Source: a virus. Taken from it: DNA of 64,000 nucleotides. This document shows positions 1,793 to 62,881 of this stretch, piece after piece. The notes beneath the pieces were generated by a model, which saw only the letters and a program-made list of their open reading frames with translations, was not told the origin of the DNA and did not search any database. A program made the translations under genes and the position numbers. Positions within the stretch are counted from its first letter, which is position 1, and each line of letters starts with the position of its first letter. The stretch covers positions 119,529 to 183,528 of the IMG/VR virus record IMGVR_UViG_3300049846_002130. One strand, 5' to 3'.

Positions 1793-1985
1793 CTTTTTTC
1801 TTTAGTTGACGTTTGGCTGGTTGAGGCTCTAACTTCGATTCTGACTTTGGTTCAGGAGTTGGTTTGCTATCAACACTAATCAATGCTTCTAGCCTTTTAA
1901 CGCTTTGCTCCAAAACTTCAATTCGGCTTCTTAAAAGCTTAATTTGTTTTGCCTGATGTATTGCTGTCATCAGCTCTTGACTCAT
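1779..1985 (-). CDS. Small coiled-coil protein
   Basis: The start is set at the ATG at 1985 because GGAGGAG lies just upstream; an earlier in-frame start at 2012 lacks such a site. The 68-residue product has an N-terminal leucine-heptad region (IKLLRSRIEVLEQSVKRLEALI) and a Pro/Lys/Glu-rich tail ending KKKDDIE. It overlaps the uracil-DNA glycosylase stop as ATGA and the next gene by a few codons. No family was recognised. Confidence 0.6.
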   Translation of the reverse strand: MSQELMTAIHQAKQIKLLRSRIEVLEQSVKRLEALISVDSKPTPEPKSESKLEPQPAKRQLKKKDDIE

Positions 1986-9837: not shown

Positions 9838-9879
9838 AAAACATAAAGATACGCCGTTTCTAGCGTATCTTTATGTTTT
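9838..9879. terminator. Bidirectional intrinsic terminator overlapping a stop codon
   Basis: A 17-bp perfect stem (AAAACATAAAGATACGC / GCGTATCTTTATGTTTT) with an 8-nt loop and U-runs on both strands. The last codons of the TROVE gene form one arm and its TAG stop (9860-9862) lies in the loop. Confidence 0.85.
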
Positions 9880-11257
9880 TAATTGTATCTACTAGAGATG
9901 TGCTATCAGAGGCAAATCTAATAACAGCATTAATTAGCTGTGTATTAAGTCCCGACATGTTTAAGGTATTGTCATCTGAGACGGGGACACAAGGTTTAAA
10001 TTCTAGATCCCAGAATACAACTTTACCTTTAATTTTACCTTGCTCTCTTAAGTCAGCATATACTTCTTTAACAGAGGTACTAGTTTGATTTTCTACCCAG
10101 GTTTCATTGTCAGATAAAATAATTGTTAAATCTGTTTCTGGTTGAATAGCTTCCAAAGCAGCAGTTACTCGAGTGCTACCACCAACAGAGAATAAGGTTC
10201 TAATTGAAGTTGAGAATAGTTGCTCTTTAGTTATTGTCTCTTCAATCTCAGTATTAAAGGTAGTTATAGTTGTTTTATCTGTAGCCATATATCTAGCCAA
10301 CCACAAAGCTTTGTCAATGTATTGATGCCTATACATACTTGTAGAAACATCAATAAAGATTTGTATATTTAAATCTGATGATAAAGCAGGAGTGTACTTT
10401 ATTGACTCATTAAGAGCTTGCTCAAATACTGGGCTATAATTAATATTGCGCCAAGTAATTACTAAAGATTCAAGATCTTTACGAAGTGTAGTTGCATCGA
10501 CATCTAGTAATTTACTATCTGTTAGCTCTTTATTATGACTACTAAACTGATTATAGAATTTTCTAATTTGTGTCCAAGTGCTTCGTGTAATTAGATCATC
10601 CTTTTGCTTATCACTCATTTTGTTCCAATGATTGAGAAGCAAAATGCCCGGAGCATATCTTGGTAGTCTATCTGTTAACTCACCAGATAAGAACATTTTA
10701 TATTCATTTAGAAACAATGGATATTCTTTTGTTCTTTTAAATAACCATGAAAAATAATCAACGTGTGTCGAAGGCGGATTGGGATGTGTAAGAGAAATTA
10801 AGTCTTTTAATGTTGGAGTTCCATAATCTTGCGCAAATAAAACTTCTGGTTCTGTCTGTACTAAAAATTCTTTAATATAGTTTTTAGCTGCAGATCCAAG
10901 AGATCTAATACCAATTTCTCCACCTCTAACTAGTTGAACAAACTTTTTAATCATTCCAAGATTGTCTAGTATATATGGGACTGTTTCATTGAATAGCTCT
11001 GGCTCTTTTCTTACTAATAGTAAGATAAGAAGAACAATTGGTGTATCCTTCATCCCAGCTTGAGTTCTTGCATAGATAGCTGTCTGTGCAATATATTCTG
11101 AATCGCATCTATTTGCTGTATCTAATAGCTGCTGTAAATTAGCAGTAGAACGAGTCTTGGAAGTTAAAATAGCTGTTGTTGCAATTTTTGCTAATAATTC
11201 TTCTGGAGTCATTATATCCATAATTCCACCAGCAGAATTTCTTATATGTCCGTCCAT
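9860..11257 (-). CDS. TROVE-domain Ro60/Rsr-like RNA-binding protein
   Basis: Ro60 family proteins are ring-shaped HEAT-repeat proteins with a C-terminal VWA domain; they bind misfolded small RNAs and Y RNAs, and bacterial Rsr passes RNA to PNPase. Residues about 15-290 show the helical repeat region (TPEELLAKIATTAILTSK; QTAIYARTQAGMKDTPIVLL), and the VWA part carries the metal site IFIDVSTSM near residue 300 and IILSDNE later. Length, 465 residues, is close to Ro60. The ATG has GGAGG upstream. The region 5' of it is divergent with a virion gene. The phage also encodes several tRNA-like RNAs that could be ligands (inference). Confidence 0.85.
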   Translation of the reverse strand: MDGHIRNSAGGIMDIMTPEELLAKIATTAILTSKTRSTANLQQLLDTANRCDSEYIAQTAIYARTQAGMKDTPIVLLILLLVRKEPELFNETVPYILDNLGMIKKFVQLVRGGEIGIRSLGSAAKNYIKEFLVQTEPEVLFAQDYGTPTLKDLISLTHPNPPSTHVDYFSWLFKRTKEYPLFLNEYKMFLSGELTDRLPRYAPGILLLNHWNKMSDKQKDDLITRSTWTQIRKFYNQFSSHNKELTDSKLLDVDATTLRKDLESLVITWRNINYSPVFEQALNESIKYTPALSSDLNIQIFIDVSTSMYRHQYIDKALWLARYMATDKTTITTFNTEIEETITKEQLFSTSIRTLFSVGGSTRVTAALEAIQPETDLTIILSDNETWVENQTSTSVKEVYADLREQGKIKGKVVFWDLEFKPCVPVSDDNTLNMSGLNTQLINAVIRFASDSTSLVDTIKNIKIR

Positions 11258-11368
11258 TTGTCCTCCGCTTGCATTTGATTAATCAATTAAGTAATATCTT
11301 TTTGCTGACTAAATCAACCATGGGGTTGCATTATTAAAGAATGTGGGGTCAGGTCGAAATCATAACAA

Positions 11369-11386
11369 AGGCGTCATAAGACGCCT
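11369..11386 (+). promoter_or_regulatory. Hairpin in the 5' leader of the virion gene
   Basis: A 7-bp perfect stem AGGCGTC/GACGCCT with loop ATAA lies 21 nt before the start codon at 11407, in the divergent region 11258-11406. It may stabilise or regulate the late mRNA. No confident -35/-10 pair was found in this divergent region. Confidence 0.4.
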
Positions 11387-11406
11387 AAATTCGATTGGGA
11401 GTTTAA

Positions 11407-12813
11407 ATGACTGGATGGATAAAAAGAGAGTTCGCTGCCGATGATTTTGGTCCCGGTATAAGAACTAAAGTTACCGCAAGTGCTCAAGTAGAGCCTAATC
11501 GGGTTGTATTGGTATCTTCTACTAATACTGCAGCCCATGCCTCTGTTTACGCACATGAATTTGGTGAGTGTACTGGCGTTTGTGTAGCTAAAAGTACAGT
11601 TAATCCTTCTGAGGCTTTCTATGTAGCTACATCTGGCGATGTAGATATAGATGCTATTGATGAGATATCTGCTGGCTCTCCTGTAAAAGTTTACAGTGCT
11701 GGTAAGGTCGGGCCCGCTCTTAGAAAGAGTGATGTTCTGGCTACAAGAGGTTCCTCTTTTGGAGCCGGGTTTACAAATCAGCCAGCTAACGATGGTATTG
11801 AAGTAGTTAGCTCTAGTGCTCTTGATGTTCAATATCTAGATCTTTATGGAACTACTCATGGCACTACTACTCTAGTACGCGAGAGAATACATCTTACTGG
11901 TACTTCTGTTGTAAGCACAGTTAAAACTAACTGGGGCAGACTACTTGGTGCTTTAATACCTCGTGGGCTAGGAAGAAATGCTGTGGGCACTATTACTATT
12001 CGAGAAGCATCTGGTAATGCCACTATTACTACAATTGTCCCAACTGCTCGTAGCAGTGGCATAGTCTTAGTTAGCTCTGCTAACAGACCAATGTTTGGTT
12101 TGCCAGGTGTCGTTGTGGGTTCAGAACCCAGCACAAGAATAGTTGGTCTTATTGGTACAGCTCTTGATAACTCTACTGCTGTTCTAGAAGCAGTAGCTTT
12201 AGCTGGAACAGATCTTGTTTCTTTAACGGAGTCACTGGCTAGTATCACAGCTTTATTAATTGGTGATATTGATGATACTACTGTTGTAGATATCAAGCTT
12301 CATCCACATTATGATATCTCTACTATAGTAGGAGTAGCTTTAGCTGATGCTGAACCAGCAACTAAAGTTCCTGTTAATTTAATCCATAGAGAGCGTAATC
12401 GTGAACTTGAAGGTGCTGAAGCAGCACGGACTTACTCTGTAACTGTTACTGGTGGAGTTATAGCTGACAGCTATACAACTCCAGTATCAATACTACCACC
12501 ACCTCCTAGTGGTAAGTCTTACCTTGTTGAAAGAGTAAAGGCTTCTTGGGAATATGGTTCAGCTCCTATGGTTTCTGGTAGCTTTACAGATATTGGGTTT
12601 GCTTTTACTAGCTCTGGAACACTAGTAAGTTCTTTAGTTCCATTAGCAGTACTTGAGGGTACAAGTGATTACACTAAAGTACATACTCTCGGTACTAGTG
12701 TTTTAGTGAACGAAGGTCTAGAGCTTGTTGCTGCTGGTGATGATGCTACCGATGGTGGAACAGATAATAGTTTAACACTTACAATTGTCTATAGAATTGT
12801 TTCTATAATGTAA
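11407..12813 (+). CDS. Virion structural protein (head-fibre/decoration type)
   Basis: A 468-residue protein rich in Ser, Thr, Val and Gly with an N-terminal part (RVVLVSSTNTAAHASVYAHEFGECTGVCVA...AGSPVKVY) that resembles the small beta domain of phage head-fibre or DUF2190-like proteins, followed by long repetitive beta segments. The C-terminal 100 residues form another beta domain (PPPPSGKSYLVERVKASWEYG). The ribosome site GGGAG precedes the ATG. It is an isolated rightward gene closed by a strong terminator. The exact virion position is not known. Confidence 0.6.
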   Translation: MTGWIKREFAADDFGPGIRTKVTASAQVEPNRVVLVSSTNTAAHASVYAHEFGECTGVCVAKSTVNPSEAFYVATSGDVDIDAIDEISAGSPVKVYSAGKVGPALRKSDVLATRGSSFGAGFTNQPANDGIEVVSSSALDVQYLDLYGTTHGTTTLVRERIHLTGTSVVSTVKTNWGRLLGALIPRGLGRNAVGTITIREASGNATITTIVPTARSSGIVLVSSANRPMFGLPGVVVGSEPSTRIVGLIGTALDNSTAVLEAVALAGTDLVSLTESLASITALLIGDIDDTTVVDIKLHPHYDISTIVGVALADAEPATKVPVNLIHRERNRELEGAEAARTYSVTVTGGVIADSYTTPVSILPPPPSGKSYLVERVKASWEYGSAPMVSGSFTDIGFAFTSSGTLVSSLVPLAVLEGTSDYTKVHTLGTSVLVNEGLELVAAGDDATDGGTDNSLTLTIVYRIVSIM

Positions 12814-12831
12814 GACTAAACTTAGTAATAG

Positions 12832-12867
12832 ATATAAAAAGAGGGCCTTATGGCCCTCTTTTTATAT
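12832..12867. terminator. Bidirectional terminator between convergent genes
   Basis: A 16-bp stem (ATATAAAAAGAGGGCC / GGCCCTCTTTTTATAT), loop TTAT, U-runs on both strands. The TAA stop of the leftward lipoprotein gene (12848-12850) is in the loop. Confidence 0.9.
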
Positions 12868-13861
12868 ACTTAAATTGAGCTGTTCCAGTAGTTTGATAAC
12901 TTAAAAATTCAGAATAGATACTATTAGTCACAACATCATAAATCCAATCGTTAACTATTATCGTCACATTATCTATTAGATAGTAAACCTCAATAGTATC
13001 TGCTACTGGGAAATAAGATAAGTAATAATTATCGTCTTCCAGATAGGTAAAGTTCTCAGCAATATCATCTAAGGTTGGGGTCCAGTCTGGAGAGTTGATA
13101 TCTATTATTTTACTACTTTGTCCATAGGCTTCAGATAGCTCAATATAGGCTTCTCCTATAAGATTCTCTGGATCTCCATATGGTGCACTAGTTGTAACAA
13201 TAGAATGAATATCTAAGCTCATTCTGGAGTCTCGCTCGTCGTCCATTAGGTTTCTAACAATGTTAGGTGGAACAGATGTATGATCATCTTCATCTGAAAT
13301 TATGATTAATTCTAATGGAACTAGTGGTCTATAATATTGTTGTGTGGCTGACAGTTCCATAGTTAAGGCAATACCCTGTTCGTTTCCTGAGCCTGTAGTC
13401 CCTACTAATAGTAGGTCCCTTAGTAGGATATCTGCTTCTTCAACCAGTGGTGTTAATATTGTATAACCCTGACTCATTTCTAGTTGATATTTAGGAGTAA
13501 AACTAAACACACCAACTCTAAAATCTATATCACTTCCTATTAAGGGATCTATTATAGACACACTATTAACAGAAATTAATTTTTGATTATCATTCATAGA
13601 ACAAGAGTCGTCTACTAAAAAGAATAAATCCATTTTTTTAGTTTTATTGACGACTATGTTCTCGACTATATATTCTGTAAAGTCTATCGTCTGAACACTA
13701 GTTGGCAGTACAGGCTCTGATACTCTAGAAATATTATTTTCAATACAGCCTACAGGCGAACTAGTTACTAAAAGAAACAGTAAGAATATTATGAAGTTCT
13801 TCTTCAGTAAACTCTGAAGGAGATAATTCGTTAATGTCTTCGACTCTGAAAGCTGCTGCAT
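12848..13861 (-). CDS. VWA-domain lipoprotein
   Basis: Start chosen at the ATG at 13861, 8 nt after a GGAGG that is itself inside the GGGGH codons of the upstream DHH gene. After a charged N-terminus comes a hydrophobic segment (FIIFLLFLLV) and a lipobox-like PVGC, so the mature protein is probably a membrane-anchored lipoprotein. The VWA domain shows FFLVDDSCSMND (metal site) and IIISDEDDH; it resembles the periplasmic VWA proteins of Gram-negative bacteria. Calcium- or metal-dependent adhesion at the cell envelope is likely; the partner is unknown. About 337 residues. Confidence 0.7.
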   Translation of the reverse strand: MQQLSESKTLTNYLLQSLLKKNFIIFLLFLLVTSSPVGCIENNISRVSEPVLPTSVQTIDFTEYIVENIVVNKTKKMDLFFLVDDSCSMNDNQKLISVNSVSIIDPLIGSDIDFRVGVFSFTPKYQLEMSQGYTILTPLVEEADILLRDLLLVGTTGSGNEQGIALTMELSATQQYYRPLVPLELIIISDEDDHTSVPPNIVRNLMDDERDSRMSLDIHSIVTTSAPYGDPENLIGEAYIELSEAYGQSSKIIDINSPDWTPTLDDIAENFTYLEDDNYYLSYFPVADTIEVYYLIDNVTIIVNDWIYDVVTNSIYSEFLSYQTTGTAQFKYIKRGP

Positions 13862-14825
13862 TTTTATGGCCTCCACCACCATATAGTTTAGCAAGTTCAG
13901 ATACGTCGAGGCCACCATCTTTTGATGAACGTAAAGATATATTCCACCCTTTCCCAGTACAGTAATAAATAGCAGCTGTCTTAAGCTTATTAGCTTCTGC
14001 TAAATTACTACCTAATTCCGACTGATAAAAATTACAGTTAATAGCAGGTATAACATAGTTGCTTATTAATAGTTTATGTACCTTGTTAGGAGATCCAAGT
14101 ATACCTATTACTTTGTTGTGGTAGCGAAGATAAGATTTACCTTCAGCTACACATTCATCATAATGATCAGTAAGCCTTGCTGATATTTTATCCCACTCAG
14201 GAAAGGTACGCCTATACATCTCTATAACTAATAAGAGTTCTTTTGCATTTGGAACTTTCCATTTCCAAATATCTCGATCTTCAATAAGATCAATAAGTAA
14301 CGGGCGACCTACACCAAGCTCATCTTTACAAAACCAGTCCCAAACAATACCTGCTCCGGATCTGTTCATATCAAAATATGTATATGGCAGATCTCCACAT
14401 TCCTTTTGTGCAGAGATATGATGATCGAGTACAAGTACTTCATCAAAATGATCGGCACATGTAATCAACATATCTCTGTGTGGACAAATATCTGCAAAGA
14501 GAATCTTTTGAGCACCAGATTCTTTTAGAAGTTTTTTGGTTGCTTCAAATTTGTGATCTTCTCTGATAAAACGAATTTTAGTATCTAGTAAACTACATTC
14601 TAAATATTCTAAATCACCATCTGCATCTAACATGCTAGCTATATTTTTAGCACCAAGCTTCTTTATATAGTGATAGTAACCCCATGCTGCTCCAAATCCA
14701 TCAGGACACGGGGCGTGGAATACAATAACGTCATAAAAAAGTAAATCAAGCTTTGCAATAGCTATAGCTAATTTTTGAGCTTTAGGTAATAAATTACTAG
14801 GTATAAAATTTTTACTTTCTATCAT
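13761..14825 (-). CDS. DHH/DHHA1 family phosphoesterase
   Basis: The N-terminal DHH domain shows FHAPCPDGFGAAWG (first metal Asp), FADICPHRDML and VLDHHIS, the signature DHH motif. The C-terminal DHHA1 domain ends with YGGGGHKNAAAFRV. Enzymes of this family hydrolyse nanoRNA, pAp or cyclic dinucleotide products, or act like RecJ on DNA; the short form without an OB domain favours nanoRNase-type activity. The ATG at 14825 is preferred over one five codons upstream. It overlaps the lipoprotein gene by 100 nt, an unusually long overlap. Confidence 0.8.
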   Translation of the reverse strand: MIESKNFIPSNLLPKAQKLAIAIAKLDLLFYDVIVFHAPCPDGFGAAWGYYHYIKKLGAKNIASMLDADGDLEYLECSLLDTKIRFIREDHKFEATKKLLKESGAQKILFADICPHRDMLITCADHFDEVLVLDHHISAQKECGDLPYTYFDMNRSGAGIVWDWFCKDELGVGRPLLIDLIEDRDIWKWKVPNAKELLLVIEMYRRTFPEWDKISARLTDHYDECVAEGKSYLRYHNKVIGILGSPNKVHKLLISNYVIPAINCNFYQSELGSNLAEANKLKTAAIYYCTGKGWNISLRSSKDGGLDVSELAKLYGGGGHKNAAAFRVEDINELSPSEFTEEELHNILTVSFSN

Positions 14826-25249: not shown

Positions 25250-26944
25250 ATGACTGGTGCTTTTAAACCTGGGGCTACATCCGGAACAACAGTAAGTGTC
25301 GAAGAACTTCCAGATACCTTAGGCCAGAGTACAATGGCTGGTAGCCTATCAGTTGTTATTGCAAGTGATCAAACTCCAATACCAATCTCTGGAAGTATTA
25401 CAGCTACCAATCCTAGTGTGGGTCTTACGGGTGATCCAGTTCCCACTTCCGCTACTTTTATTGGTGGAGAGAATGAATTTGGAGATCTATACGGTCCTAG
25501 AGTTTTTGATTTAGACTATTTAGGACCTGCTGAGTGGAACTTAGGTGTCAACCTTAGATTTGGTGCAGACGGAGGAAGTGTCGAAGCTGGTACAGCTCTA
25601 GATCCTATTCGTATTGACCCTACCGGAACCACTGCTCAACCTATTACTGATAATGGGGGAAGCCTTACTATAGATAGCTCTCAACTGCCCCCGGTCTTAG
25701 GATCAACAACTTCAGCTAATAGTTTGTCTGTTGTTCTTGCTAGCGATCATGGATTTGTTTTTGTTCATGATGGGGGCGGGTCTTTATCTGTAGATGATGG
25801 TGGGGGCTCCCTAACTGTAGACGGTACAGTTACAGCTAATATAGGTACTGCAGGTGGACTAGCTCTTAATACAACTCTTACTAATGGAACTCAAAAATCT
25901 ATTGTTCGTAGTGGAGATAAAGGTTCATCTGTTTCTGCAGATATAACATCAACCCCTCAAAGTGTTGATCATGAGGCTCTTGATATTCAATTATATCATT
26001 CTGGAACAGCTATAGATCCCACACAAATCAGAGCACTAACAGCTTCAGATATAGTAACTGCAGAGGTTAGTAGCTGGCTTGGAAGTACAGCTCCTACTGT
26101 TGGTCAAAAGTCTATGGCCAATTCAGTTCCAGTTGTTCTAGCTAGTGATCAAAGTACAATTGTAGTTTCTGGAACCGTTACTGCAAGTAACCCAAGTGTT
26201 GGTACTAATAATACTGCTGCCCCAGGTTCCTCTACACAGATAGGTGGGACTGATGGAACTAATCTTCAATCTGCTAGAGTTTTTGATTTGGATTCAGGTG
26301 GCGGAACCCAATATGTTATTGGGGTTGGATTACGCAAAGCAGCTTCAGGTGGTTCTGTTGAAGCAGGAACCTCAACAGATCCTTTAAGGACAGATCCTAC
26401 TGGAACAACTGCTCAACCCGTAACAGATAATGGTAGTTCTATTACTGTAGATGCACCTGTAGGAACCCCTGTAGCTGTTCGTCTTTCTGATGGAGCTGCT
26501 TTCTATGATGGAACGAAGACTGGTCAACTACCAACAGCTCTTGTTGGAGGGCGACTCGACACTAATATCGGAGCTTGGCTAGGCTCTACAACGCCCACAG
26601 TCGGTCAGAAGACTATGACAGATAGTCTTCCTGTTGTATTAGCTAGCAACCAATCTTCTCTTCAGGTAAACTTTCAGTCTTCAAGTAGTAGTGTAAGTAG
26701 TGTTGCTGCTAGTGCAACTAGTGTCACACTACTTGCCTCTAATTCCTCTAGGAAAGGAGCCAGCATTTATAACGATAGTACTAAGAATCTTTACATTAAG
26801 CTAGGATCTACAGCTTCTAGTACAAGCTTTAGTATATTACTTAATAATGGTGGTTATTATGAAGTACCCTTTGGATATACTGGAGTTATAGATGGTATTT
26901 GGAATATTGCATCAGGTAATGCTAGAATTACGGAGTTAACATAA
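25250..26944 (+). CDS. Repetitive tail-fibre protein
   Basis: 564 residues with recurring modules: TLGQSTMAGSLSVVIASDQT, PTVGQKSMANSVPVVLASDQS and PTVGQKTMTDSLPVVLASNQS, plus GTTAQP(V/I)TDNGGS(L)T(V/I)D and two copies of RVFDLD...GVxLR. These modules are characteristic of long phage tail fibres. Starts with ATG 24 nt from the divergent mnmA start; it may rely on read-through or on a promoter inside mnmA. Confidence 0.8.
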   Translation: MTGAFKPGATSGTTVSVEELPDTLGQSTMAGSLSVVIASDQTPIPISGSITATNPSVGLTGDPVPTSATFIGGENEFGDLYGPRVFDLDYLGPAEWNLGVNLRFGADGGSVEAGTALDPIRIDPTGTTAQPITDNGGSLTIDSSQLPPVLGSTTSANSLSVVLASDHGFVFVHDGGGSLSVDDGGGSLTVDGTVTANIGTAGGLALNTTLTNGTQKSIVRSGDKGSSVSADITSTPQSVDHEALDIQLYHSGTAIDPTQIRALTASDIVTAEVSSWLGSTAPTVGQKSMANSVPVVLASDQSTIVVSGTVTASNPSVGTNNTAAPGSSTQIGGTDGTNLQSARVFDLDSGGGTQYVIGVGLRKAASGGSVEAGTSTDPLRTDPTGTTAQPVTDNGSSITVDAPVGTPVAVRLSDGAAFYDGTKTGQLPTALVGGRLDTNIGAWLGSTTPTVGQKTMTDSLPVVLASNQSSLQVNFQSSSSSVSSVAASATSVTLLASNSSRKGASIYNDSTKNLYIKLGSTASSTSFSILLNNGGYYEVPFGYTGVIDGIWNIASGNARITELT

Positions 26945-26945
26945 G

Positions 26946-29900
26946 ATGTCTAGCACTAATAAAGCAGTAATATTATTAGATAGTACCGATGATATTCTTG
27001 TAGGCCAACGGGTATCTGCCGATAGCATTCCTGTTACAGTTGCATCTGATCAACCTGCTATTGCTGTTAGTATGTCTACATCTCCTTTACCAACAGGAGC
27101 TGCAACTGAAGCTACACTTAGCTCTTTATTAACATCATCACAATTACTTGATGATGTTATTTATACGGCTGGAACAAGTACTTATACAGAAGCAGCTAGT
27201 AAAGGCTCTCTAATTCTAGGTATTAGAAGAGATGCTGATACTTCATTAGTAGACACTACTAATGAGATGGCTCCGTTACAAGTAGATGCAAATGGTAGAC
27301 TAAAAGTTGAAGCTTTTTCTGGAGAGACATTACCAGTATCTCTTACATCTACAACTATAACTGGGACAGTAGCAGTAACCAAGTCTGGGACATGGACCTT
27401 AGATGCTAATTCTGGTGTAGATATTGGTGATGTTACAATTAATAATGCTTCTGGAGCTGGTGCTGTAAATATACAAGATGGTGGCAATTCAATTACTGTA
27501 GACGGAACAATTGCTGCTACTCAATCTGGAACATGGTCAACCAGAACACAAGATGGTTCTGGTAATAATATAACTTCTGCATCTAGAGGTTCTGAAAGAG
27601 CTTTATCTGTTCAGATAGTTGACGGTTCTGGCACACAAATAACCTCATTTGGTGGAGGAACACAATATACAGAAGATATTGCTGCTGCTGCTGATCCTAT
27701 TGGCAATATGCTACTTGTCGTACGAGCAGATTCTCTTGCATCAATAACAGATTCTGATGGCGATAATTTAGCATTAAGAGCAACCAATAAAGGTGAGTTA
27801 TACGTAAAGCAAACCGATGCTATTCCGGTAACTGATAATGCTGGTAGTTTAACTGTAGACAATGGAGGTACTTTTGCGGTTCAAGAAAGTGGAGCTGCAC
27901 TAACTTCACTCCAACTTATAGATGATATTGTTGGTACAGCTGGCTCTGCTATTACAAGTAAAGCTGGTGTTGTAGCTGGTAGTGATGGAACAACTACAAG
28001 AATCATTTCTACAACAGCAACTGGAATAGTAAAAGTAGATTTGTCTGGAACCAATGCTAATAGTACGGCTGTTAAAGTAGATGGCTCTTCTTTTACTCAA
28101 CCAGTTAGTGGTACGGTCACTGCTAATTTGGCTGCTGGAACTAACAATATTGGTGATGTTGATGTTTTAACAGTTCCTGCTCCTTTATCAACAACTGGTA
28201 ATGGAACAGCAGCAACGGCTTTACGGGTTACTGTAGCTTCTGATTCTACAGGTGTTTTAGCTGTTACAGATAATGGTGGAAGCCTCACTGTAGATGGTAC
28301 TGTGGCTGCCACCCAGTCTGGGACATGGAATATTACCAATATTTCTGGAACGGTATCACTACCAACAGGAGCAGCTACACTATCTGAACAACAAACACAA
28401 ACAACTTCTTTGCAATTACTTGATGATGTTGTTGTTGTTGATAATGCTGCTTTTACTGATGGGACAACAAAACTTTCTATGGCTGGCTACATCTACGACG
28501 ATGTAGCTGGAACAGCATTATCTGAAAACGATGCTGCTGCAGCTAGAATCAATAGTAATAGAGCATTAGTTAATACTATTGAAGATGGTGCAACTAGAGG
28601 CAGATACGCGACAGTTACTGCTTCAAATGCTATCAAAGTAGATGGTTCGGCAGTAACACAGCCAATATCTGCTTCCTCTTTGCCATTGCCTACTGGTGCC
28701 GCAACCGAAACAACTCTAACTGGTGTATTAACAACATCGGCCTTTCAGGCAAGAGTAAATACTCTCGGCCAGAAGACTATGGCTAACTCAACACCAGTCG
28801 TCGTCGCTTCTGACCAGACTGCGATACCCTCATCGCAGTCTGGAGCTTGGACAGTCACTGCTAACGCAGGCACCAATCTGAATACGTCTGCTCTAGCTTT
28901 AGAATCTGGTGGTAATCTAGCCTCGGTTGTTACAAATACAACTAACATTCCTAATGTTATAGGTACAGCTGCTTCAGCAATTCCATCTAAACTTATTCAA
29001 GTAGGCGGTAGCGATGGTACAAATGCTAGAGCAATTAGAACAAACACATCTGGTCAGCTAGATATTCGGCCGCTAACAAACGCTGATGTTGTTAAGTCTC
29101 AGCTTCAAGATAATGCTGGAAATGGTTTAACTAGTAACAGTACTACCTATACTGCAAAGTTTGCTTTAGATGAAAACTTGCTAGGTACTTTAGGCACTGC
29201 TTTTTCAACTCCTGGTAAGGTAGATATTAAGGGTGCTGACGGAGATGTCTTTGTCAGACAAGCAACAGCTTCAAACCTTAATGCAACAGTTGTTGGCACA
29301 GGAACTTTTGCCGTCCAAGCAGCTCAAAGCGGTACCTGGACAGTTCAGCCAGGTAATACAGCCAATACAACAGCATGGCTTGTTACTGGAACCGGCGGCA
29401 CCTTCCCAGTAACTGATTCTGGTGGTTCTTTAACTGTAGATAATAATGGAACATTTGCAGTTCAAGCATCTATTGCTGCTGGAGCTACAAGTATTGCAAA
29501 GGCCGAAGACGTTGCAAGTGCTAATGCAGATGTTGGTGTCCCTGCTATGGCAGTGCGTAAAGCTGTCCCAGCTAATACATCTGATACAGATGGCGACTAT
29601 GAAATGCTACAACTTAACCGTGGACGTTTATGGACTACGGCTACAGTTGATGCTTTACCTGCTCATGCATATGATATTTTTGGCAAAATAAGAATCTCTG
29701 AGCAATTTAATGATGTTGAGGTACAGTTCCATAGAGACTCACCGGCAAATCTTGTAACAATTACTGCTGCTGGTACGCCTAATGGAACAGCCGACAACAC
29801 CACTGTACCTGGTTTAATGCAAATGGCAACAGGTACGGGAACAACTGGTGAAATTAAAGCAGTTACAAAAGATTCGGTTATCTATCGTTCGGGTGCTGAA

Positions 29901-43459: not shown

Positions 43460-43748
43460 CGTCTATCTCTTCTAGTAGATAATCTAGAATTTTTATGAAT
43501 TCTTTTTGAGTTGGCTCAGGATTAACATCTTTAATTCGTAGTCTATATTGTGGTTGAAACCTAATAATATACTCTCTAAAATTACCAAGACTAATTGAAA
43601 TTTTAATAGGATTTAAATTTATCTTTTGAGTTTTTTCATATAGGAGAGTTGTTTTAGGACCAATAAGCTCTTCTAAAGCTTGTGCCTCAGCTTCCTCTTC
43701 TTTTTTTCTCAAGATAAATGGATTTAGTAATTTAAGTATTCTAATCAT
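43452..43748 (-). CDS. Hypothetical protein, 98 aa
   Basis: Basic N-terminus with a leading hydrophobic helix (MIRILKLLNPFILRKKEEEAEA), then a Lys/Arg-rich beta region and an acidic C-terminus (YLLEEIDDD). Coupled to the metallophosphoesterase by a short overlap. No family recognised. Confidence 0.5.
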   Translation of the reverse strand: MIRILKLLNPFILRKKEEEAEAQALEELIGPKTTLLYEKTQKINLNPIKISISLGNFREYIIRFQPQYRLRIKDVNPEPTQKEFIKILDYLLEEIDDD

Positions 43749-44404
43749 AGATCTACTACAATAGGCTTGTTAAGCTTACGATAGTTTTCATCTAATGATG
43801 CTGCATTAACAGCAATAGTCTTATTATTAGAATACTTATATTGACCATAGCCTTCATGGATATGACCAAAGGCATGAAGATCTATACTTAAGCCTTCTAC
43901 TCTAGATCTTAAAGGTTTACTACCAACATTGTAATCTACTTCACCATCAAACAAATGGTTTACTTGATCGCCAAGACCATAAGGTGGAACATGGGTAAGT
44001 AATATGTTGGTATCATCTGGTATGTGGTCCCAAACGGAATCTTGTTCATTATAGAATGCCCAACCCTTTAGGTCCTTCTGTAGAGGTGAGCCATAGAACT
44101 TAAGAGAATCAATTATAATTGATTCTCTATACAAATAATGACAGTTTTCTGGCAAAGTCTTAAGAAGCTCTCTAAATCGTGGCTTCTGCCTTTCGCAGAA
44201 GAAGTCATGATTACCGGCAATAAATACGATATGTCTAGCTGGTATTGGCTCTTCATGACCGTTGCCTAGCCAATTAAGAAAACCCAAAACTTCACGCTCT
44301 GTTCCGTTCATTGTAAAATCACCAGTATGAATTAAGAAATCACATTCTGGGATATGTAATTTATGTGCTTGGTTATGAGTATCAGAAATAAAAGTTAAAC
44401 GCAT
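43745..44404 (-). CDS. Calcineurin-like metallophosphoesterase (paralogue 2)
   Basis: 219 residues. Motifs: FISDTHNQAH, IHTGDFTMNG, IAGNHDFF, LLTHVPPYGLGDQ and FGHIHEGYG, spaced like paralogue 1 (41.7 kb) and ending with the same AVNAAS..., NKPI... block. A tandem-type duplication separated by three genes. MPPED/UPF0046-like phosphodiesterase. Confidence 0.85.
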   Translation of the reverse strand: MRLTFISDTHNQAHKLHIPECDFLIHTGDFTMNGTEREVLGFLNWLGNGHEEPIPARHIVFIAGNHDFFCERQKPRFRELLKTLPENCHYLYRESIIIDSLKFYGSPLQKDLKGWAFYNEQDSVWDHIPDDTNILLTHVPPYGLGDQVNHLFDGEVDYNVGSKPLRSRVEGLSIDLHAFGHIHEGYGQYKYSNNKTIAVNAASLDENYRKLNKPIVVDL

Positions 44405-44405
44405 A

Positions 44406-44900
44406 TTAGTTCTCTATAGTGTTGCAGATAAGAGCCCATCTTGTTGTATAAGAAACACAGCCTTGCTGTTTTGGATTACTCCAATCTACTTTATGATATG
44501 GCCTTTCAAGACCAGGTATGTTAGTTGGGAAGATAAATATCTGGCCAGGATTTTGATTAAACTTTTGGCTATCTACAGTTAACACTGTATGCCATAAATT
44601 TCCATAAAGGCTAACTACTGTAAGTCCTTTATTGTTTAATGGATCTTTGTGTCCAGATACATTTTGTCCTGGCTCATATTTTTGAATAAACCAAGTATTG
44701 AATACTTGTGCGGGAACCAATGAGTTTAAATTTAAAAACTCTTCTTGAATTAGCTTAGGTAACTTATCTAAGGATTTAATCATTTTAAACTGAAAGTTAC
44801 CTAGCCAAGTTGGACAATTTCTATACGAAAGGTTTTCTAACTCACCTATTAAACTTGGTTCAGCTCCATAAGTAAATGGATTGGGTATTCTAATTAGCAA
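44406..44900 (-). CDS. AlkB-like 2-oxoglutarate/Fe(II) dioxygenase
   Basis: The double-stranded beta-helix iron site is visible as His84 and Asp86 (SGHKDP) and His136 (RPYHKVDW), with the 2-oxoglutarate-binding Arg154 in TTRWALIC. FIQKYEPGQNVSGH resembles AlkB-type and phage-encoded hydroxylases. Could repair alkylated nucleic acid or modify bases or tRNA; the family alone does not decide. 164 residues, a compact form. Confidence 0.75.
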   Translation of the reverse strand: MLIRIPNPFTYGAEPSLIGELENLSYRNCPTWLGNFQFKMIKSLDKLPKLIQEEFLNLNSLVPAQVFNTWFIQKYEPGQNVSGHKDPLNNKGLTVVSLYGNLWHTVLTVDSQKFNQNPGQIFIFPTNIPGLERPYHKVDWSNPKQQGCVSYTTRWALICNTIEN

Positions 44901-45090
44901 TTAGAATACCCATAAATATAGCAAATGGTAACTGCCATATTAAAGCTAAGCCCAAAATCTTAAGTTTGGCTTCTATTGAAATTAACTTAGAATCTATATG
45001 GGTTGTAATTCTTCTATAAAAAATAGTCCAAACAAAGAAATTAATTATGGAAAGTATTGCTAAGGTACTACTTAGATTTAATAACGGCAT
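44890..45090 (-). CDS. Small membrane protein, two TM segments
   Basis: Sixty-six residues: LAILSIINFFVWTIFY, a short charged loop, and LGLALIWQLPFAIFMGILI. Overlaps both neighbours. Probably inner-membrane; no role can be assigned. Confidence 0.5.
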   Translation of the reverse strand: MPLLNLSSTLAILSIINFFVWTIFYRRITTHIDSKLISIEAKLKILGLALIWQLPFAIFMGILIAN

Positions 45091-45487
45091 TTTGACTCTC
45101 TAAAATTTCTGTTCTTAAATTTAATAGCTCTCTTCTTATAAGCCGGCAATATGTCATTGATCTAAAAGTTGAAGCTAAATAAATATCAACAACTAATCGT
45201 TTTTGAGTAGAAGTTAGATGATCTTCCCAAAAGCCAATAACCTGATGTGCATCGATATTAGATCTTATATAAGTTGTAACAGGAATATGACGAAGAGTTT
45301 CTAGTCTATCAAGGTAGACTAGGGCCTTATCTATGTCTTGAACTCCATTCTTTTGATAGGCTCTTACTGCGTATTTAAAGATATTAAACAGATGTGGACA
45401 AAGTCTCCATGCTTCTGCAACATCATTTACAGAATAGACAGGTAGCTCGTAGTAGCTAGGATTAATAACTGTACGAAGAAAGTCCAT
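45068..45487 (-). CDS. DUF3310-like protein
   Basis: Start placed at the ATG at 45487 giving MDFLRTVINPSYYELP. The stretch NIFKYAVRAYQKNGVQDIDKALVYLDRL matches the DUF3310 (phage 'nucleotide kinase'/SaV-like) helical pair. Family function is unknown. The start codon lies 17 nt after the stop of the upstream gene, behind a stop-containing hairpin. Confidence 0.65.
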   Translation of the reverse strand: MDFLRTVINPSYYELPVYSVNDVAEAWRLCPHLFNIFKYAVRAYQKNGVQDIDKALVYLDRLETLRHIPVTTYIRSNIDAHQVIGFWEDHLTSTQKRLVVDIYLASTFRSMTYCRLIRRELLNLRTEILESQNAVIKSK

Positions 45488-55562: not shown

Positions 55563-55690
55563 GGCAATCTCCATAATACGATAATTATCGTGGTAACTAA
55601 AAACCATAATAATTTAGCTGGACCAGTTAATGATATTTCTACTTCTAATATCTTTTTAGTAAATATTAGATAAAGGAATAGCAATAACAT
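55559..55690 (-). CDS. Small membrane protein, 43 aa
   Basis: Read from the gap: MLLLFLYLIFTKKILEVEISL then LWFLVTTIIIVLWRLP. Two TM segments. TGA overlaps the next ATG. It starts 17 nt from tRNA-Thr. Confidence 0.55.
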   Translation of the reverse strand: MLLLFLYLIFTKKILEVEISLTGPAKLLWFLVTTIIIVLWRLP

Positions 55691-55707
55691 GACAAATCCT
55701 TTAGTGG

Positions 55708-55778
55708 AGCCCGAAACTAGAATCCAACTAGTGTCTATTACTTACAAGGTAATTGCTTTAGCACTAAGCTATACGGGC
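55708..55778 (-). tRNA. tRNA-Thr(TGT)
   Basis: 71 nt: acceptor GCCCGTA/TTCGGGC (one T-T mismatch), D arm GCTT...AAGC, anticodon arm ATTAC-CTTGTAA-GTAAT (TGT), T arm ACTAG-TTGGATT-CTAGT. The T loop TTGGATT is slightly unusual. Confidence 0.8.
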
Positions 55779-55786
55779 TTAATTAA

Positions 55787-55816
55787 GTGGGGGCTGGGAA
55801 GTCTCCCAGCCCCCAC
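55787..55816. terminator. 13-bp GC-rich hairpin
   Basis: Perfect stem GTGGGGGCTGGGA/TCCCAGCCCCCAC with a 4-nt loop. It lies between the noncoding region at 55.8-56.1 kb and tRNA-Thr. No strong U-run, so a transcription barrier or processing element. Confidence 0.6.
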
Positions 55817-55819
55817 CAT

Positions 55820-56092
55820 GATTTGATAAGTAGTTTACTCTACTGATCTTTGTGTAGTCGAGATCTTACTGATAGTCAATTACAGTCTACTATCCGGGCG
55901 CCGAGCTTTGTACTATGAACAAGCTGTACTTCATAGTCCGATCAAGATTTCTTCAGTTTCCTTACTATCTCTCAGGCTCAATTGCCGACATTGCTTTAGC
56001 GCAAGATTAGAAGTTAAGTTGATATTTCGCGTTGATCTACCAACCTAAAGTTGTTGTCTCTTCCCATTTCTGGGATCTGACTTTTATTATAG
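55820..56092 (-). ncRNA. Candidate structured noncoding RNA, about 270 nt
   Basis: No ORF. Hairpins: ACTATGAA/TTCATAGT (55912-55937, 8 bp), GATCT/AGATC, GATAGT/ACTATC, and on the minus strand TCCCA-GAAA-TGGGA, a GNRA tetraloop that supports the minus strand as the transcribed one. Lies directly upstream (5', minus) of the 13-bp hairpin and tRNA-Thr. Not a recognised RNase P, tmRNA or 6S. Function unknown. Confidence 0.45.
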
Positions 56093-56156
56093 AATACTCA
56101 GTAAAAACATAGATAGAATCATTTAATTATAGTTACCTTCATTGATTGAGGGCACC

Positions 56157-56171
56157 GGGGGCTATGCCCCC
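56157..56171. terminator. GC-rich short hairpin
   Basis: Six-bp stem GGGGGC/GCCCCC with a 3-nt loop, downstream of the Ala-rich gene at 56210. A second, stop-containing hairpin (56200-56223) precedes it on the minus strand. Confidence 0.4.
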
Positions 56172-56199
56172 ACGCACTAGCCTTAAGCCCTGCTAGTAG

Positions 56200-56223
56200 C
56201 TGCTAGCTATCAAGAGCTAGCAG
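56200..56223 (-). terminator. Hairpin with TGA stop in the loop
   Basis: Eight-bp stem CTGCTAGC/GCTAGCAG; the 8-nt loop holds the TGA stop (56210-56212) of the upstream gene. Confidence 0.55.
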
Positions 56224-56659
56224 TAGTCTTGGCAGCCTTAATGGCTGCAAAAAACTCAGTACGGAAGCTGTCAGGTACTGACTTCACTCGCTCCCAGTCT
56301 TCATGACTAAGACCAACATCGTGACAACAAGTGATCCGATTAAGAGCCAAACACCAGGGAATAAAATTATTGGTAGCTGCAGCATAAGCCTTAGCAATAT
56401 CAATCTCCAAAAGCTTATTCTTAGCAGCTCCTTCAAGAACCCTGAGTCGACGAATCTCGCCACGAAGAGCTTCCTTTCTAATAGCCTCTCCATCCATAAG
56501 GGTCTTGATGGCCTCAACAGCATCTCGCTCAGCAGCAGCCTTCCTCTCTGCAGCAGCAGTCTTAAAGGCATCACTTAGCTGAGGAAATGCCTCAGTCTCC
56601 GTATTAGAAGTAACCGTAGTAAGGGCCAGTAAGCCCAAAGTATTGTACGTCATTGGCAT
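56210..56659 (-). CDS. Ala-rich helical protein, 149 aa
   Basis: The ATG at 56659 has AAGGAG six bases upstream; an earlier frame start lacks one. Body is an Ala/Glu/Lys/Arg-rich helix (FKTAAAERKAAAERDAVEAIKTLMDGE...) over about 90 residues, so a coiled coil is likely, then a segment with Cys pairs (IPWCLALNRITCCHD). Higher-GC codons than neighbouring genes. Function unknown. Confidence 0.55.
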   Translation of the reverse strand: MPMTYNTLGLLALTTVTSNTETEAFPQLSDAFKTAAAERKAAAERDAVEAIKTLMDGEAIRKEALRGEIRRLRVLEGAAKNKLLEIDIAKAYAAATNNFIPWCLALNRITCCHDVGLSHEDWERVKSVPDSFRTEFFAAIKAAKTTASS

Positions 56660-56718
56660 ATCAGACTCCTTATTGTGCTTTAAGCACAGCGTTCGCACTG
56701 CTAAAGTAATTTTAGTGG

Positions 56719-56802
56719 TGAGAGCTAGGGTATTCGAACCCCGAAGCTTTGCTTGCTACAGACATAAGAGTCTGGCTAGACACCTATCTAGCTTAAGCTC
56801 TC
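56719..56802 (-). tRNA. Unusual type II tRNA-like gene, anticodon unclear
   Basis: 84 nt: perfect acceptor GAGAGCT/AGCTCTC, a 6-bp D stem GCTAGA/TCTAGC, anticodon stem CAGAC/GTCTG with only a 6-nt loop (TCTTAT), variable arm AAGC/GCTT, and a T stem GGGGT/ACCCT with a 6-nt TCGAAT loop. Both the anticodon and T loops are one base short. The anticodon could be CTT (Lys) or TTA; neither is safe. Confidence 0.5.
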
Positions 56803-56829
56803 ATAAATATATGTTTTTGAGTAGGGAAT

Positions 56830-58010
56830 ATAACCACCCCGTCTATCGGATTTGCCGTCCTCTTTACAAAGGATAGGCTCCCAGACCCGTTCCGGACTCT
56901 ATGTTGTACCTGACTTTACTAACGTCAATTAATCTGGCCTACAACAATAAAGACCGATTAACCAATGTGGCGGTAGTAAAGCAACTATATTTGGTCTGAG
57001 TTTCACAGACACTTAATACTTGCTAAAGCAAGTACTGGCTCTGACGCTTGGAGGCCAATCCATTTAATACTCATTGGAGCTTACCCTTGAGAGCGGCCCT
57101 AGCAAATATAGTCTAGATTAATTAGCTACTATTAAGCTATTGGATCCTTTAATAACTAATCAACCATATGAGAGGTTTTTATTATCTTCTTTTATTCTAG
57201 ATAACTTAGAGCCTGGGCCAGGCATAAATACCCCGCTTACTACAAAGGTAGTAAGCTTTAATAATTGCAGGAGACCTCTCTTAACCTTGCTAGTGTGCCA
57301 TTTGATATGTAGTTGGCTCTACTTAATATGATTACTATTAAGGCTAGTAACCTTGCCTTTACAGATTCGTTTTATCTGCCTATCTACTTGTCGTCAATAA
57401 GAGTAAAACTAACACGGATGATTCACCGGATAGGTCGATGTCCATCGGGATTAGTTAATTTATCTTATATCCCCTGTGGCTTTAGAAGGCCACATCCCAA
57501 AGGGTCCCAGCAGAGAGTATGAGTCAGGCCGGCTGGATAGGCATTATCCGCAATAAGCTTTAGATATCTCAATATCTAAGGTTGCCGCCTTAGTATCTTG
57601 ATAACTACAGCTTATTAACCCCTTGAAGTACGATTAACTAGCGTACTCTAGGTATAGCTTGAAGGACTATACAGCCTGATGAGCAAATGGAGGTCCAGGA
57701 GTACTAAGTACCAGTAGCTTCTGCTACTACACTTTAATATGTTATTGCCTTCCCGGACCGCAATACATCGTTTTACTTCTTAGATAACAGTAACAATAAA
57801 TAATTTAGAAGCTTATCGATGACTTTATAGCCACTTATCTAGCTACTAGTGTTTTGATAGGAAGATAGACACTACTATCATGCACATTCAATCGTTTCGG
57901 TAGCTAATCCTTATCGATTACTTCATAGACAGGCGCAAGCGTCCTCTACTAGATAGGTATAGATGCATTCCAGCGGGTGTTACCTCAAGCGATCAAATTG
58001 AGGCAGACTA
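56830..58010. ncRNA. Candidate giant structured noncoding RNA, about 1.2 kb
   Basis: No convincing coding frame over about 1.2 kb, but dense complementary pairing. Examples: ACTATATTTG (56984-56993) with CAAATATAGT (57103-57112), 10 bp; hairpin TACTTGC/GCAAGTA (57017-57034); GAGAGGT (57170-57176) with ACCTCTC (57274-57280), enclosing GCTTACTAC/GTAGTAAGC (57235-57256); TGTGGC/GCCACA (57475-57494); AATAAGCT with AGCTTATT (57552-57616) enclosing TTAGATAT/ATATCTAA; AGTAGC/GCTACT (57713-57728); CCTCAA/TTGAGG (57983-58003). Size, tRNA neighbours and phage setting recall GOLLD and ROOL RNAs. Directly 3' of the pentapeptide gene if transcribed leftward. Confidence 0.6.
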
Positions 58011-58026
58011 AGTCCTATCATCTCAG

Positions 58027-58044
58027 GCGTCCTGTCAAGGACGC
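58027..58044 (-). terminator. Hairpin with TGA stop in a tetraloop
   Basis: Seven-bp stem GCGTCCT/AGGACGC with loop GTCA (TGAC on the minus strand); the TGA stop of the pentapeptide gene (58035-58037) lies within it. Confidence 0.6.
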
Positions 58045-58490
58045 TCAATACCAGTAGCATCTCTAAGGTCGGCCCCCTGGAGGTTGGCCCCCTGGAAGTT
58101 GGCCCTCTGGAGGCTGGCCCCTCGGAGGTTGGCCCCCTGGAGGTCAGCCTCCTGGAGGTTGGCCTCCTGGAGGCTGGCCCCTCGGAGGTTGGCCCCCTGG
58201 AGGTTGGCCCCCTGGAAGTTGGCCCTCTGGAGGTTGGCCCTCTGGAGGTTGGCCCCCTGGAGGTTGGCCCCTCGGAGGTCAGCCCCCCGGAGGTCAGCCA
58301 CCAGGAGGTCAGCCCCCTGGAGGTTGGCCCCCCGGAGGTCAGCCCCCCGGAGGTCAGCCCCCTGGAGGTCAGCCCGCTGGGGTGCAGTTCCTTCCTCGAC
58401 AGGATGGGCTTCGAAGCCTTGGCTTCGAAGCCAAGCTTGGTGAGGCCCGTACCAAGGGAAGCGGGCCATGAGGTTGGTATAATCAATCAT
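58035..58490 (-). CDS. Pentapeptide-repeat protein
   Basis: After an N-terminal segment of about 38 residues (MIDYTNLMARFPWYGPHQAWL), some 22 tandem A(D/N)L(Q/R)x pentapeptides follow (ADLQG, ADLRG, ANLQG, ASLQE). Such repeats fold into a right-handed quadrilateral beta helix; known members mimic DNA (MfpA, Qnr), others have no known role. 151 residues. Its DNA is GC-rich and repetitive. A second member runs off the end of the window. Confidence 0.88.
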   Translation of the reverse strand: MIDYTNLMARFPWYGPHQAWLRSQGFEAHPVEEGTAPQRADLQGADLRGADLRGANLQGADLLVADLRGADLRGANLQGANLQRANLQRANFQGANLQGANLRGASLQEANLQEADLQGANLRGASLQRANFQGANLQGADLRDATGIERP

Positions 58491-58518
58491 AGAATCTCCT
58501 AAAGATATTAATTTCTAG

Positions 58519-58591
58519 TGGATCCGGTGGAAATCGAATCCACCTCAAACGGCTTGCAAGGCTGTTTCGCCCCCTTGGTACATGCGGACCC
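58519..58591 (-). tRNA. tRNA-Ala(TGC)-like, weak D arm
   Basis: 73 nt: acceptor GGGTCCG/CGGATCC, anticodon loop CTTGCAA (TGC) on a stem with one A-C mismatch, T arm GTGGA-TTCGATT-TCCAC. The D region does not form a good stem. If read with a shifted loop it could be Cys(GCA). Confidence 0.6.
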
Positions 58592-58597
58592 ATTAAG

Positions 58598-58669
58598 TAC
58601 TTCCGAGGGTAGTCGAAACCCTGTTGCATGGATGAAAACCATGAGTCCTGACCGCTAGACGACGGAAGC
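58598..58669 (-). tRNA. tRNA-Glu(TTC)
   Basis: Acceptor GCTTCCG/CGGAAGT (one G-T pair), D arm GTCTAGCGGTCAGGAC typical of Glu, anticodon arm CATGG-TTTTCAT-CCATG (TTC), T arm AGGGT-TTCGACT-ACCCT. A substrate of the phage MnmA. Confidence 0.9.
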
Positions 58670-58748
58670 AAAAGTTAGAAAACCTAGACTATCACAAGTA
58701 CTAGGTTTTTATATTAAGCTCTGATATATAGACTTAATAACTAAATTG

Positions 58749-58823
58749 TTGGGGGATTAGGCTTCGAAACCTAATTATCTAAGCATGTCTTGCTCAAGTT
58801 AGAGTGATCAACCTCTATCCCCA
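58749..58823 (-). tRNA. tRNA-like structure, orientation and identity unclear
   Basis: 75 nt with an acceptor-like stem (TGGGGA/TCCCCCA, imperfect), a D-like arm AGAG...CTCT and a T-like arm TTAGG-TTTCGAAG-CCTAA with an 8-nt loop. No canonical anticodon arm on the minus strand. On the plus strand the loop ATGTCTT (GTC, Asp) appears but the T arm is lost. Could be a pseudogene or tRNA mimic. Confidence 0.35.
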
Positions 58824-58825
58824 AA

Positions 58826-58924
58826 CTATAGCCATAAAATCACAGCAGTTACTACTAAGGCTACTAAATAACTTAGCAATACACCAAGCACAAAACCAAA
58901 GATAATGGTTAAAAGCTTTTGCAT
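58826..58924 (-). CDS. Small membrane peptide, 32 aa
   Basis: Read from the gap: MQKLLTIIFGFVLGVLLSYLV then ALVVTAVILWL, almost fully hydrophobic. It follows the 60-residue ORF upstream by a few bases. Too short to assign. Confidence 0.5.
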   Translation of the reverse strand: MQKLLTIIFGFVLGVLLSYLVALVVTAVILWL

Positions 58925-58928
58925 GGCT

Positions 58929-59111
58929 TTAGGAACACCTATTAAAGACAACCTTAGCAAGAGCAAGATCATCATCAGTGGCACAGAACTTAAGAATCAT
59001 AACCTCTGTTCCAGGAAGAAGATCAGCTAAAAGCTTAACTTCATTTTCATGAATAACTAACACTGGATAGATATTAGGAACAAAAGGAGCGACACAGGTA
59101 TCATTAGGCAT
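58929..59111 (-). CDS. Hypothetical protein, 60 aa
   Basis: Alternating hydrophobic residues (NIYPVLVIHENEVKLLADLLPGTEVMILKF) suggest a small alpha/beta fold. Follows the SLOG-like gene by 3 nt. No family recognised. Confidence 0.5.
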   Translation of the reverse strand: MPNDTCVAPFVPNIYPVLVIHENEVKLLADLLPGTEVMILKFCATDDDLALAKVVFNRCS

Positions 59112-62558: not shown

Positions 62559-62881
62559 TGGGCCGTATAGGATTCGAACCTATGACCTCGGGCTTAACGT
62601 CACTGCACTTAGTTTCCTAAGCTACCTTAAAGGCTTGCAGTGCTGGACTATATCATCACCTTCACCTTAAGTGGTCAGGTGCTGTACGTGTAGTCTCTGA
62701 GGACTCTCTGCTAATGCAGGTTGCCTGCTGATTGTCCAATCCATTAAATTTTTACGTTTAGGCACGTATTAATGGCTCTAAGGAGTTTCCAGCATATAGT
62801 ACAGTTCATTTACTATATTTCTATAGTAACGCTCTTATTACACGTTTAAGGCCCTCGCTCTACCAACTGAGCTAACAGCCC
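62559..62881 (-). tRNA. tRNA-Lys(TTT) interrupted by a group I intron
   Basis: 5' exon 62848-62881 (acceptor GGGCTGT, D arm GCTCAGTTGGTAGAGC, anticodon stem AGGGC and CTT of the loop), 3' exon 62559-62597 (TTAA, stem GCCCG, T arm ATAGG-TTCGAAT-CCTAT, acceptor ACGGCCC, A). Joined, the loop is CTTTTAA with anticodon TTT, and the sequence is strongly like bacterial tRNA-Lys. The exact junction (inside the anticodon) is inferred from restoring this loop. A substrate of the phage MnmA. Confidence 0.85.
62598..62847 (-). other. Group I intron, 250 nt, no ORF
   Basis: Read on the minus strand it contains the group I core: a P7 strand CAGAGACTACACG (the R element) and the matching GATGATATAGTCC (the S element), P4/P6-type pairing (GATTG...CAATC, GCAGG/CCTGC) and an early hairpin TTACTATA-GAAA-TATAGTAA. 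The last intron base is G, as expected of the terminal omega-G. No homing endonuclease is encoded inside. Confidence 0.85.

What the first reader, a model, noticed from the sequence alone, without database searches (positions are those of the whole stretch)
56830..58010. About 1.2 kb of highly self-complementary noncoding DNA: candidate giant RNA
At least seven perfect stems of 6-10 bp, some nested over more than 60 nt, in a gene-free stretch flanked by tRNA genes. Size and tRNA context resemble GOLLD/ROOL-class ornate RNAs of phages, but no specific family motif was identified. It may be a new class.
Basis: partly seen in the sequence, partly recalled or inferred. Interest (0 to 1): 0.8.

Follow-up and report, generated by a model that had tools for sequence, protein, structure and literature searches.

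The report
Orphan gene-free tract in phage tRNA island
A large, nearly unknown bacterial virus carries a 1.2 kb stretch without genes inside its cluster of tRNA genes; it may encode a long non-coding RNA as such stretches do in some other phages, but its folding is no stronger than the rest of this genome and no relative was found to test it.

Summary
The window is the end of a probably circular phage contig of about 183 kb. Window 56815-58034 really has no protein gene: stop codons occur at about chance rate in six frames, there are no protein-family traces, and it is the longest intergenic region in its half of the genome. It lies in a tRNA island. The perfect stems exist (33 of at least 6 bp, against 20 +/- 5 in shuffles), but other 1.2 kb pieces of this window have 31 +/- 6, and its folding energy (z about -4.6 on the minus strand) sits in the background of this genome (-3.6 +/- 1.7). 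No Rfam family matches at E <= 5, including GOLLD, ROOL, OLE and HEARO. No homologue was found in INPHARED, PLSDB, 50 related viral contigs, or by three short exact IMG/VR patterns, so covariation could not be tested. The best reading remains an orphan minus-strand lncRNA like those of phage K and ICP1. The rival is an eroded tRNA-island spacer. Stronger candidates turned up in distant relatives: a 1.2 kb gene-free tract in G017 folds at z -13.5 and carries an HDV/theta-like ribozyme. A tRNA-Lys gene in the window holds a group I intron.

The parts
56815..58034 (-). Gene-free tract, candidate orphan lncRNA (strand inferred from neighbouring genes, tRNAs and the lower folding energy on this strand)
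   Evidence: no coding; fold energies; longest intergenic region of its half, GC 0.40 against 0.364 +/- 0.054 for other intergenic regions
57093..57299 (-). Best-defined predicted domain: closing helix GGC.C.CUAGCAA/UUGCUAGGGCC around a multibranch core with hairpin GCUUACUAC-CUUU-GUAGUAAGC; chosen after the fact
   Evidence: pair probabilities near 0.9 or above in most helices; 207 nt, z -3.7
56717..56803 (-). Class II tRNA-like element, Leu/Ser-like, 8-nt anticodon loop, reported as (ctta) only at 60% ARAGORN threshold
56210..56698 (-). 162-aa orphan ORF downstream of the tract
   Evidence: no Pfam hit, no relative
55779..56209 (-). Second gene-free, structured stretch of 431 nt, ending in a GC-rich hairpin
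   Evidence: z -3.15; z -4.84
55705..55778 (-). tRNA-Thr(UGU)
58035..58490 (-). Pentapeptide-repeat protein gene upstream of the tract
58518..58591 (-). Low-scoring tRNA-Ala(UGC)-like element
58597..58669 (-). tRNA-Glu(UUC)

Best explanation
Window 56815-58034 is most likely the template of an orphan, roughly 1 kb non-coding RNA, transcribed from the minus strand as part of the phage's tRNA island or from its own promoter. The likely outcome is a stable, abundant, folded transcript that acts as an RNA during infection, in the way of the tRNA-adjacent lncRNAs of Staphylococcus phage K and the ORF-less ~0.8 kb transcript of phage ICP1. Shown here: no protein coding, position, orientation of neighbours, length, and lack of a known RNA family. 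Inferred: transcription, strand, stability and function. Exceptional structure is not shown.
For: No coding signal. It is the longest intergenic region of the 86-183 kb half, and slightly richer in G+C than other intergenic regions and genes there; long GC-raised intergenic regions are the criterion of the published GC-IGR pipeline (PMC8632094). It lies in a tRNA island, all on one strand. The minus strand folds lower than the plus strand. Precedents: phage K lncRNAs next to tRNAs are among its most abundant transcripts (PMC9241854; PMC7698491), and the most abundant ICP1 transcript comes from a ~1 kb ORF-less space (PMC7567579). Controls folded in the same way: phage K lnc001 z -5.7, lnc002 z -2.8, ICP1 gap -2.7 kcal/100 nt; the window tract has z about -4.4 and -3.3 kcal/100 nt.
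Against: Fold energy and stem number are at this genome's background, whereas in phage K and ICP1 the lncRNA loci mostly stand out from their coding background. No homologue in any searched collection. No convincing own promoter or terminator at the ends (consensus scans, weak).
Confidence: 0.5

Rival explanations
1. Eroded tRNA-island spacer: what is left after tRNA genes and small genes were gained, decayed and lost; its stems are the general high self-complementarity of this genome, with no RNA function.
For: Stem counts and folding at genome background; decayed or odd tRNA-like elements nearby; no homologue, and its neighbours are orphans too.
Against: The genome is otherwise tightly packed, with only four intergenic regions of 300 nt or more in 97 kb; no recognisable gene or tRNA remnant inside the tract.
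Confidence: 0.33
2. A new giant structured RNA class in the sense of GOLLD/ROOL, possibly assembling into large complexes.
For: Size, tRNA context and a compact predicted domain at 57093-57299; distant relatives hold kb-scale gene-free tracts with extreme folding (G017 z -13.5, G034 z -10).
Against: The tract is not more structured than background; no sequence similarity to the relatives' tracts.
Confidence: 0.12
3. A cis-acting DNA element such as a replication origin, or a cluster of very short genes.
For: Cumulative AT skew has its minimum near 177.95 kb of the record, window 58424; ten short ORFs of 25 aa or more overlap it.
Against: GC-skew extremes lie elsewhere (19.3 and 91.5 kb); no iteron-like repeats; ORFs inside the tract on the gene strand are at most 35 aa, and no frame is open beyond chance.
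Confidence: 0.05

Closest known systems
Staphylococcus phage K lnc001 and lnc002 (and the same RNAs of phage vB_SauM-515A1)
   Same: ORF-less stretch of 0.5-1 kb next to tRNA genes, same strand as the tRNAs, no Rfam family reported (PMC9241854, PMC7698491)
   Different: Theirs are shown by RNA-seq; lnc001 folds well beyond its own genome's coding background (z -5.7 against -2 to +1), this tract does not
Vibrio phage ICP1 ORF-less transcript between gp139 and gp140
   Same: ~1 kb ORF-less space in a large lytic phage (PMC7567579)
   Different: Transcription shown there; ICP1 has no tRNAs
GOLLD RNA
   Same: Length over 800 nt, phage, near tRNA islands (PMC12286853)
   Different: No match to any Rfam model up to E 5
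ROOL RNA (RF03087)
   Same: Phage, near tRNA islands (PMC12286853)
   Different: No match in the window; twice as long as the 574-position ROOL model
Theta (HDV-like) ribozymes of phages
   Same: Phage tRNA islands; found in distant relatives of this phage (PMC10879173)
   Different: None in the window or the rest of this genome

Membership tests
GOLLD RNA | Match to the Rfam covariance model (conserved 3' region) | tested here: not met
   cmscan of the window at gathering and of 55600-59000 at E <= 5: no GOLLD
GOLLD RNA | Near tRNA genes in a phage or prophage, over ~800 nt | tested here: met
ROOL RNA | Match to RF03087 | tested here: not met
   Window. In 50 relatives none either, but the control did not ring, so absence there is not shown
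OLE / HEARO | Match to their Rfam models | tested here: not met
   (all 4227 families)
Group I or II intron | Catalytic core match, or tRNA halves on either side | tested here: not met
   none in the tract; at default score no tRNA is split around it (a positive control, tRNA-Lys at 62560-62881, is found)
Theta / HDV-like ribozyme | P1-P4 core with CAGGCAAT and AGCAGAGG segments | tested here: not met
   Model R1: true hits only in relatives
Orphan phage lncRNA (phage K, ICP1 type) | ORF-less stretch of 0.5 kb or more in a large phage | tested here: met
Orphan phage lncRNA (phage K, ICP1 type) | Abundant transcript during infection | not testable with these tools
   No expression data for this uncultivated phage
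Orphan phage lncRNA (phage K, ICP1 type) | Folding beyond own coding background (seen for lnc001 and ICP1, weaker for lnc002; not strictly defining) | tested here: not met
New structured RNA class | Covariation in homologues | not testable with these tools
   No homologue found

The most novel reading that the evidence does not exclude
The tract encodes a member of a new giant structured RNA class confined to this uncultivated myovirus lineage, of which the strongly folded gene-free tracts in relatives G017, G034, G022, G035 and G032 are further members too diverged to align by sequence.
Probability: 0.1. Interest if true: 0.75.

Novelty: new member of a known kind. Interest (0 to 1): 0.3.

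Why it matters
If transcribed, it adds another orphan, tRNA-linked long RNA from a phage lineage with almost no cultured relatives. The function of such RNAs is an open question even for GOLLD and ROOL. The comparison also gives a caution: in this genome shuffles make any 1.2 kb piece look structured, so first-look stem counts cannot be read as evidence for an RNA. The better leads are the relatives' tracts (G017 above all), where the fold signal is far beyond this background.

Tried and rejected
Rfam at relaxed threshold: only tRNAs, plus chance hits, mostly microRNA models on the pentapeptide repeats. Homologue searches: blastn against phages and plasmids (only pentapeptide genes matched in plasmids); neighbours' proteins in IMG/VR; terminase and terminase profile to find relatives, then blastn of the tract in 50 relatives (chance matches only); three exact DNA patterns in IMG/VR (the one hit, L180, proved chance). 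G-U against A-C mismatch counts in long helices, as a test for the RNA strand, had no power: phage K lnc001, known to be transcribed, gives 6 against 7. Split tRNA across the tract: none at default score. Pseudogene: none. GOLLD in relatives by accession: I used a wrong accession, RF01998, which is a group II intron part, so that search says nothing about GOLLD.

Full report
What the window is. The window is bases 119529-183528 of a 183,528-base IMG/VR record. The record starts and ends with the same 127 bases, so it is probably a complete circular assembly. It encodes a tail sheath, a major head protein and a large terminase, so it is a myovirus-like phage. In INPHARED the terminase meets only four records, at 24-29% identity. 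In IMG/VR the nearest terminases are 39-53% identical over most of the protein, with one short fragment at 65%, apart from one 6 kb fragment with an identical structural protein. The lineage is thus poorly sampled.

Is there a gene in the tract? No. Between the pentapeptide-repeat ORF ending at 58035 and the 162-aa ORF starting at 56698 there are 1.3 kb, of which 56815-58034 holds no plausible gene. Stop codons per frame are 25-40, with 24-26 expected from composition. With stops read through, no Pfam or PHROGs family reaches E 0.01, and blastx against the ORFs of eleven relatives and of this genome gives only the region's own ORF fragments. It is the longest intergenic region of the 86-183 kb half (1103 nt free of counted ORFs; only three others reach 300 nt). 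Its G+C of 0.40 is slightly above the intergenic mean of 0.364 +/- 0.054. Long, GC-raised intergenic regions are what the GC-IGR method looks for (PMC8632094), but the rise here is under one standard deviation.

Is it unusually self-complementary? Against dinucleotide shuffles, yes: 33 perfect stems of at least 6 bp against 20.0 +/- 4.9, and a minus-strand fold at z -4.3 to -4.9. Against the rest of the same genome, no. Eighty other pieces of the window have 30.7 +/- 5.9 such stems, and 31 of them reach 33. Seventy-one windows of 1216 nt average z -3.6 +/- 1.7. The 200-nt scan puts the tract at rank 213 of 628. This is a property of the genome: coding pieces of phage K and ICP1 treated in the same way lie mostly between z -2.4 and +1.4 (one at +3.7), while pieces of this window, mostly coding, lie largely between -2 and -6. 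A compact predicted domain at 57093-57299 has most helices at pair probabilities near 0.9 or above and z -3.7, but it was picked after the fact.

Context. Neighbouring genes and tRNAs are on the minus strand. Reading 5' to 3' on that strand: tRNA-Lys(UUU) with a 250-nt group I intron (exons 62881-62848 and from 62597 down), tRNA-Met and tRNA-Gln, a low-scoring Val-like element (58748-58823), tRNA-Glu, a low-scoring Ala-like element (58518-58591), the pentapeptide gene, the tract, a class II tRNA-like element with an 8-nt anticodon loop (56717-56803), the 162-aa ORF, a second gene-free structured stretch of 431 nt, and tRNA-Thr.

Known families. cmscan against all 4227 Rfam families finds only tRNAs and the group I intron in the window at gathering score. 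In 55600-59000 at E <= 5 it finds only tRNAs and low-scoring chance hits, mostly in the pentapeptide repeats, none of them inside the tract. So the tract is not GOLLD, ROOL, OLE or HEARO as Rfam models them.

Homologues. None were found: INPHARED, PLSDB, 50 relatives, gap-against-gap comparison of eleven relatives and this genome, and three exact patterns in IMG/VR. Covariation cannot be tested with what was available.

Relatives. Several distant relatives have kb-scale gene-free tracts, and some fold far more strongly against shuffles than the tract: G017 43691-44887(+) z -13.5, G034 103045-104078(+) z -10, G022 11000-12109(+) z -8.3, G035 1824-2669(-) z -7.5 (12 shuffles each, so z is rough). 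The backgrounds of those genomes were not measured. The G017 tract has no Rfam family at gathering and one sub-threshold hit, an HDV ribozyme (29.4 bits, E 0.0046). That segment recurs in G012, G014 and G015. In G012 it sits directly after a tRNA 3' end, the arrangement described for theta ribozymes (PMC10879173). A model built from these finds none in the window's genome.

Most likely explanation. An ORF-less kilobase in a large phage has, where RNA-seq exists, more than once proved to be an abundant lncRNA, in phage K and vB_SauM-515A1 next to tRNA genes and in ICP1 without them. On that precedent and on the lack of coding I put an orphan minus-strand lncRNA at 0.5. An eroded spacer is the serious rival (0.33), because nothing measured here lifts the tract above the genome's own background. 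A new giant RNA class remains possible but is not supported by data.

Noticed in passing
window 62560-62881 (-): tRNA-Lys(UUU) gene interrupted in its anticodon loop by a 250-nt group I intron (intron 62598-62847; Rfam RF00028, 67.9 bits). ARAGORN in intron mode finds the same tRNA and intron. A search for group I intron, tRNA-Lys and phage in the paper library gave nothing relevant.
   Followed up: yes
L146 3500-5100 (G017 43500-45100, + strand): 1.2 kb gene-free tract in a distant relative with folding z -13.5 and no Rfam family, containing an HDV/theta-like ribozyme (L146 4636-4713). A much stronger giant-RNA candidate than the window's tract.
   Followed up: partly
L134 8520-8598 (-), L182/L183 1483-1589 (+): HDV/theta-like ribozymes in relatives G012 and G014/G015; in G012 directly after a tRNA 3' end, in G014/G015 after a tRNA-like end with an altered T-loop.
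   Followed up: partly
L162 2900-4200 (G034), L088 10000-14600 (G022), L108 1700-2800 (G035): Further kb-scale gene-free, strongly folded stretches in relatives (z about -7 to -10).
   Followed up: partly
window 1-64000: The whole genome is more self-complementary than dinucleotide shuffles on both strands, genes included (1.2 kb windows average z about -3.6; phage K and ICP1 genes are mostly between +1 and -2).
   Followed up: partly
window 9860-11257 (-): TROVE/Ro60-like RNA-binding protein (phrog_850, E 6e-17; a match in Myxococcus phage Mx1). Ro60 proteins bind Y RNAs, so a phage Y-like RNA may exist.
   Followed up: partly
L003 7500-17500: Stretch of about 10 kb with G+C near 0.56 in a 0.40 genome; its 1014-aa ORF (10840-13884, -) carries MQGDDDGDILG, which by eye resembles the catalytic motif of double-psi-barrel RNA polymerases (not tested).
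   Followed up: no
window 58035-58490; L003 608-1060 and 13860-14354: Several pentapeptide-repeat proteins share the leader RYPWYGPHQAWLRSQGFEA or a close variant; the record also ends inside such repeats.
   Followed up: no
window 56717-56803, 58748-58823 (-): tRNA-like elements with odd anticodon loops (8-nt loop with 'ctta'; Val-like without U33), reported by ARAGORN only at a lowered threshold.
   Followed up: partly
G022 26741-27105 and L142 12159-12549 (G001): tmRNA genes encoded by two relatives; none found in this phage.
   Followed up: no
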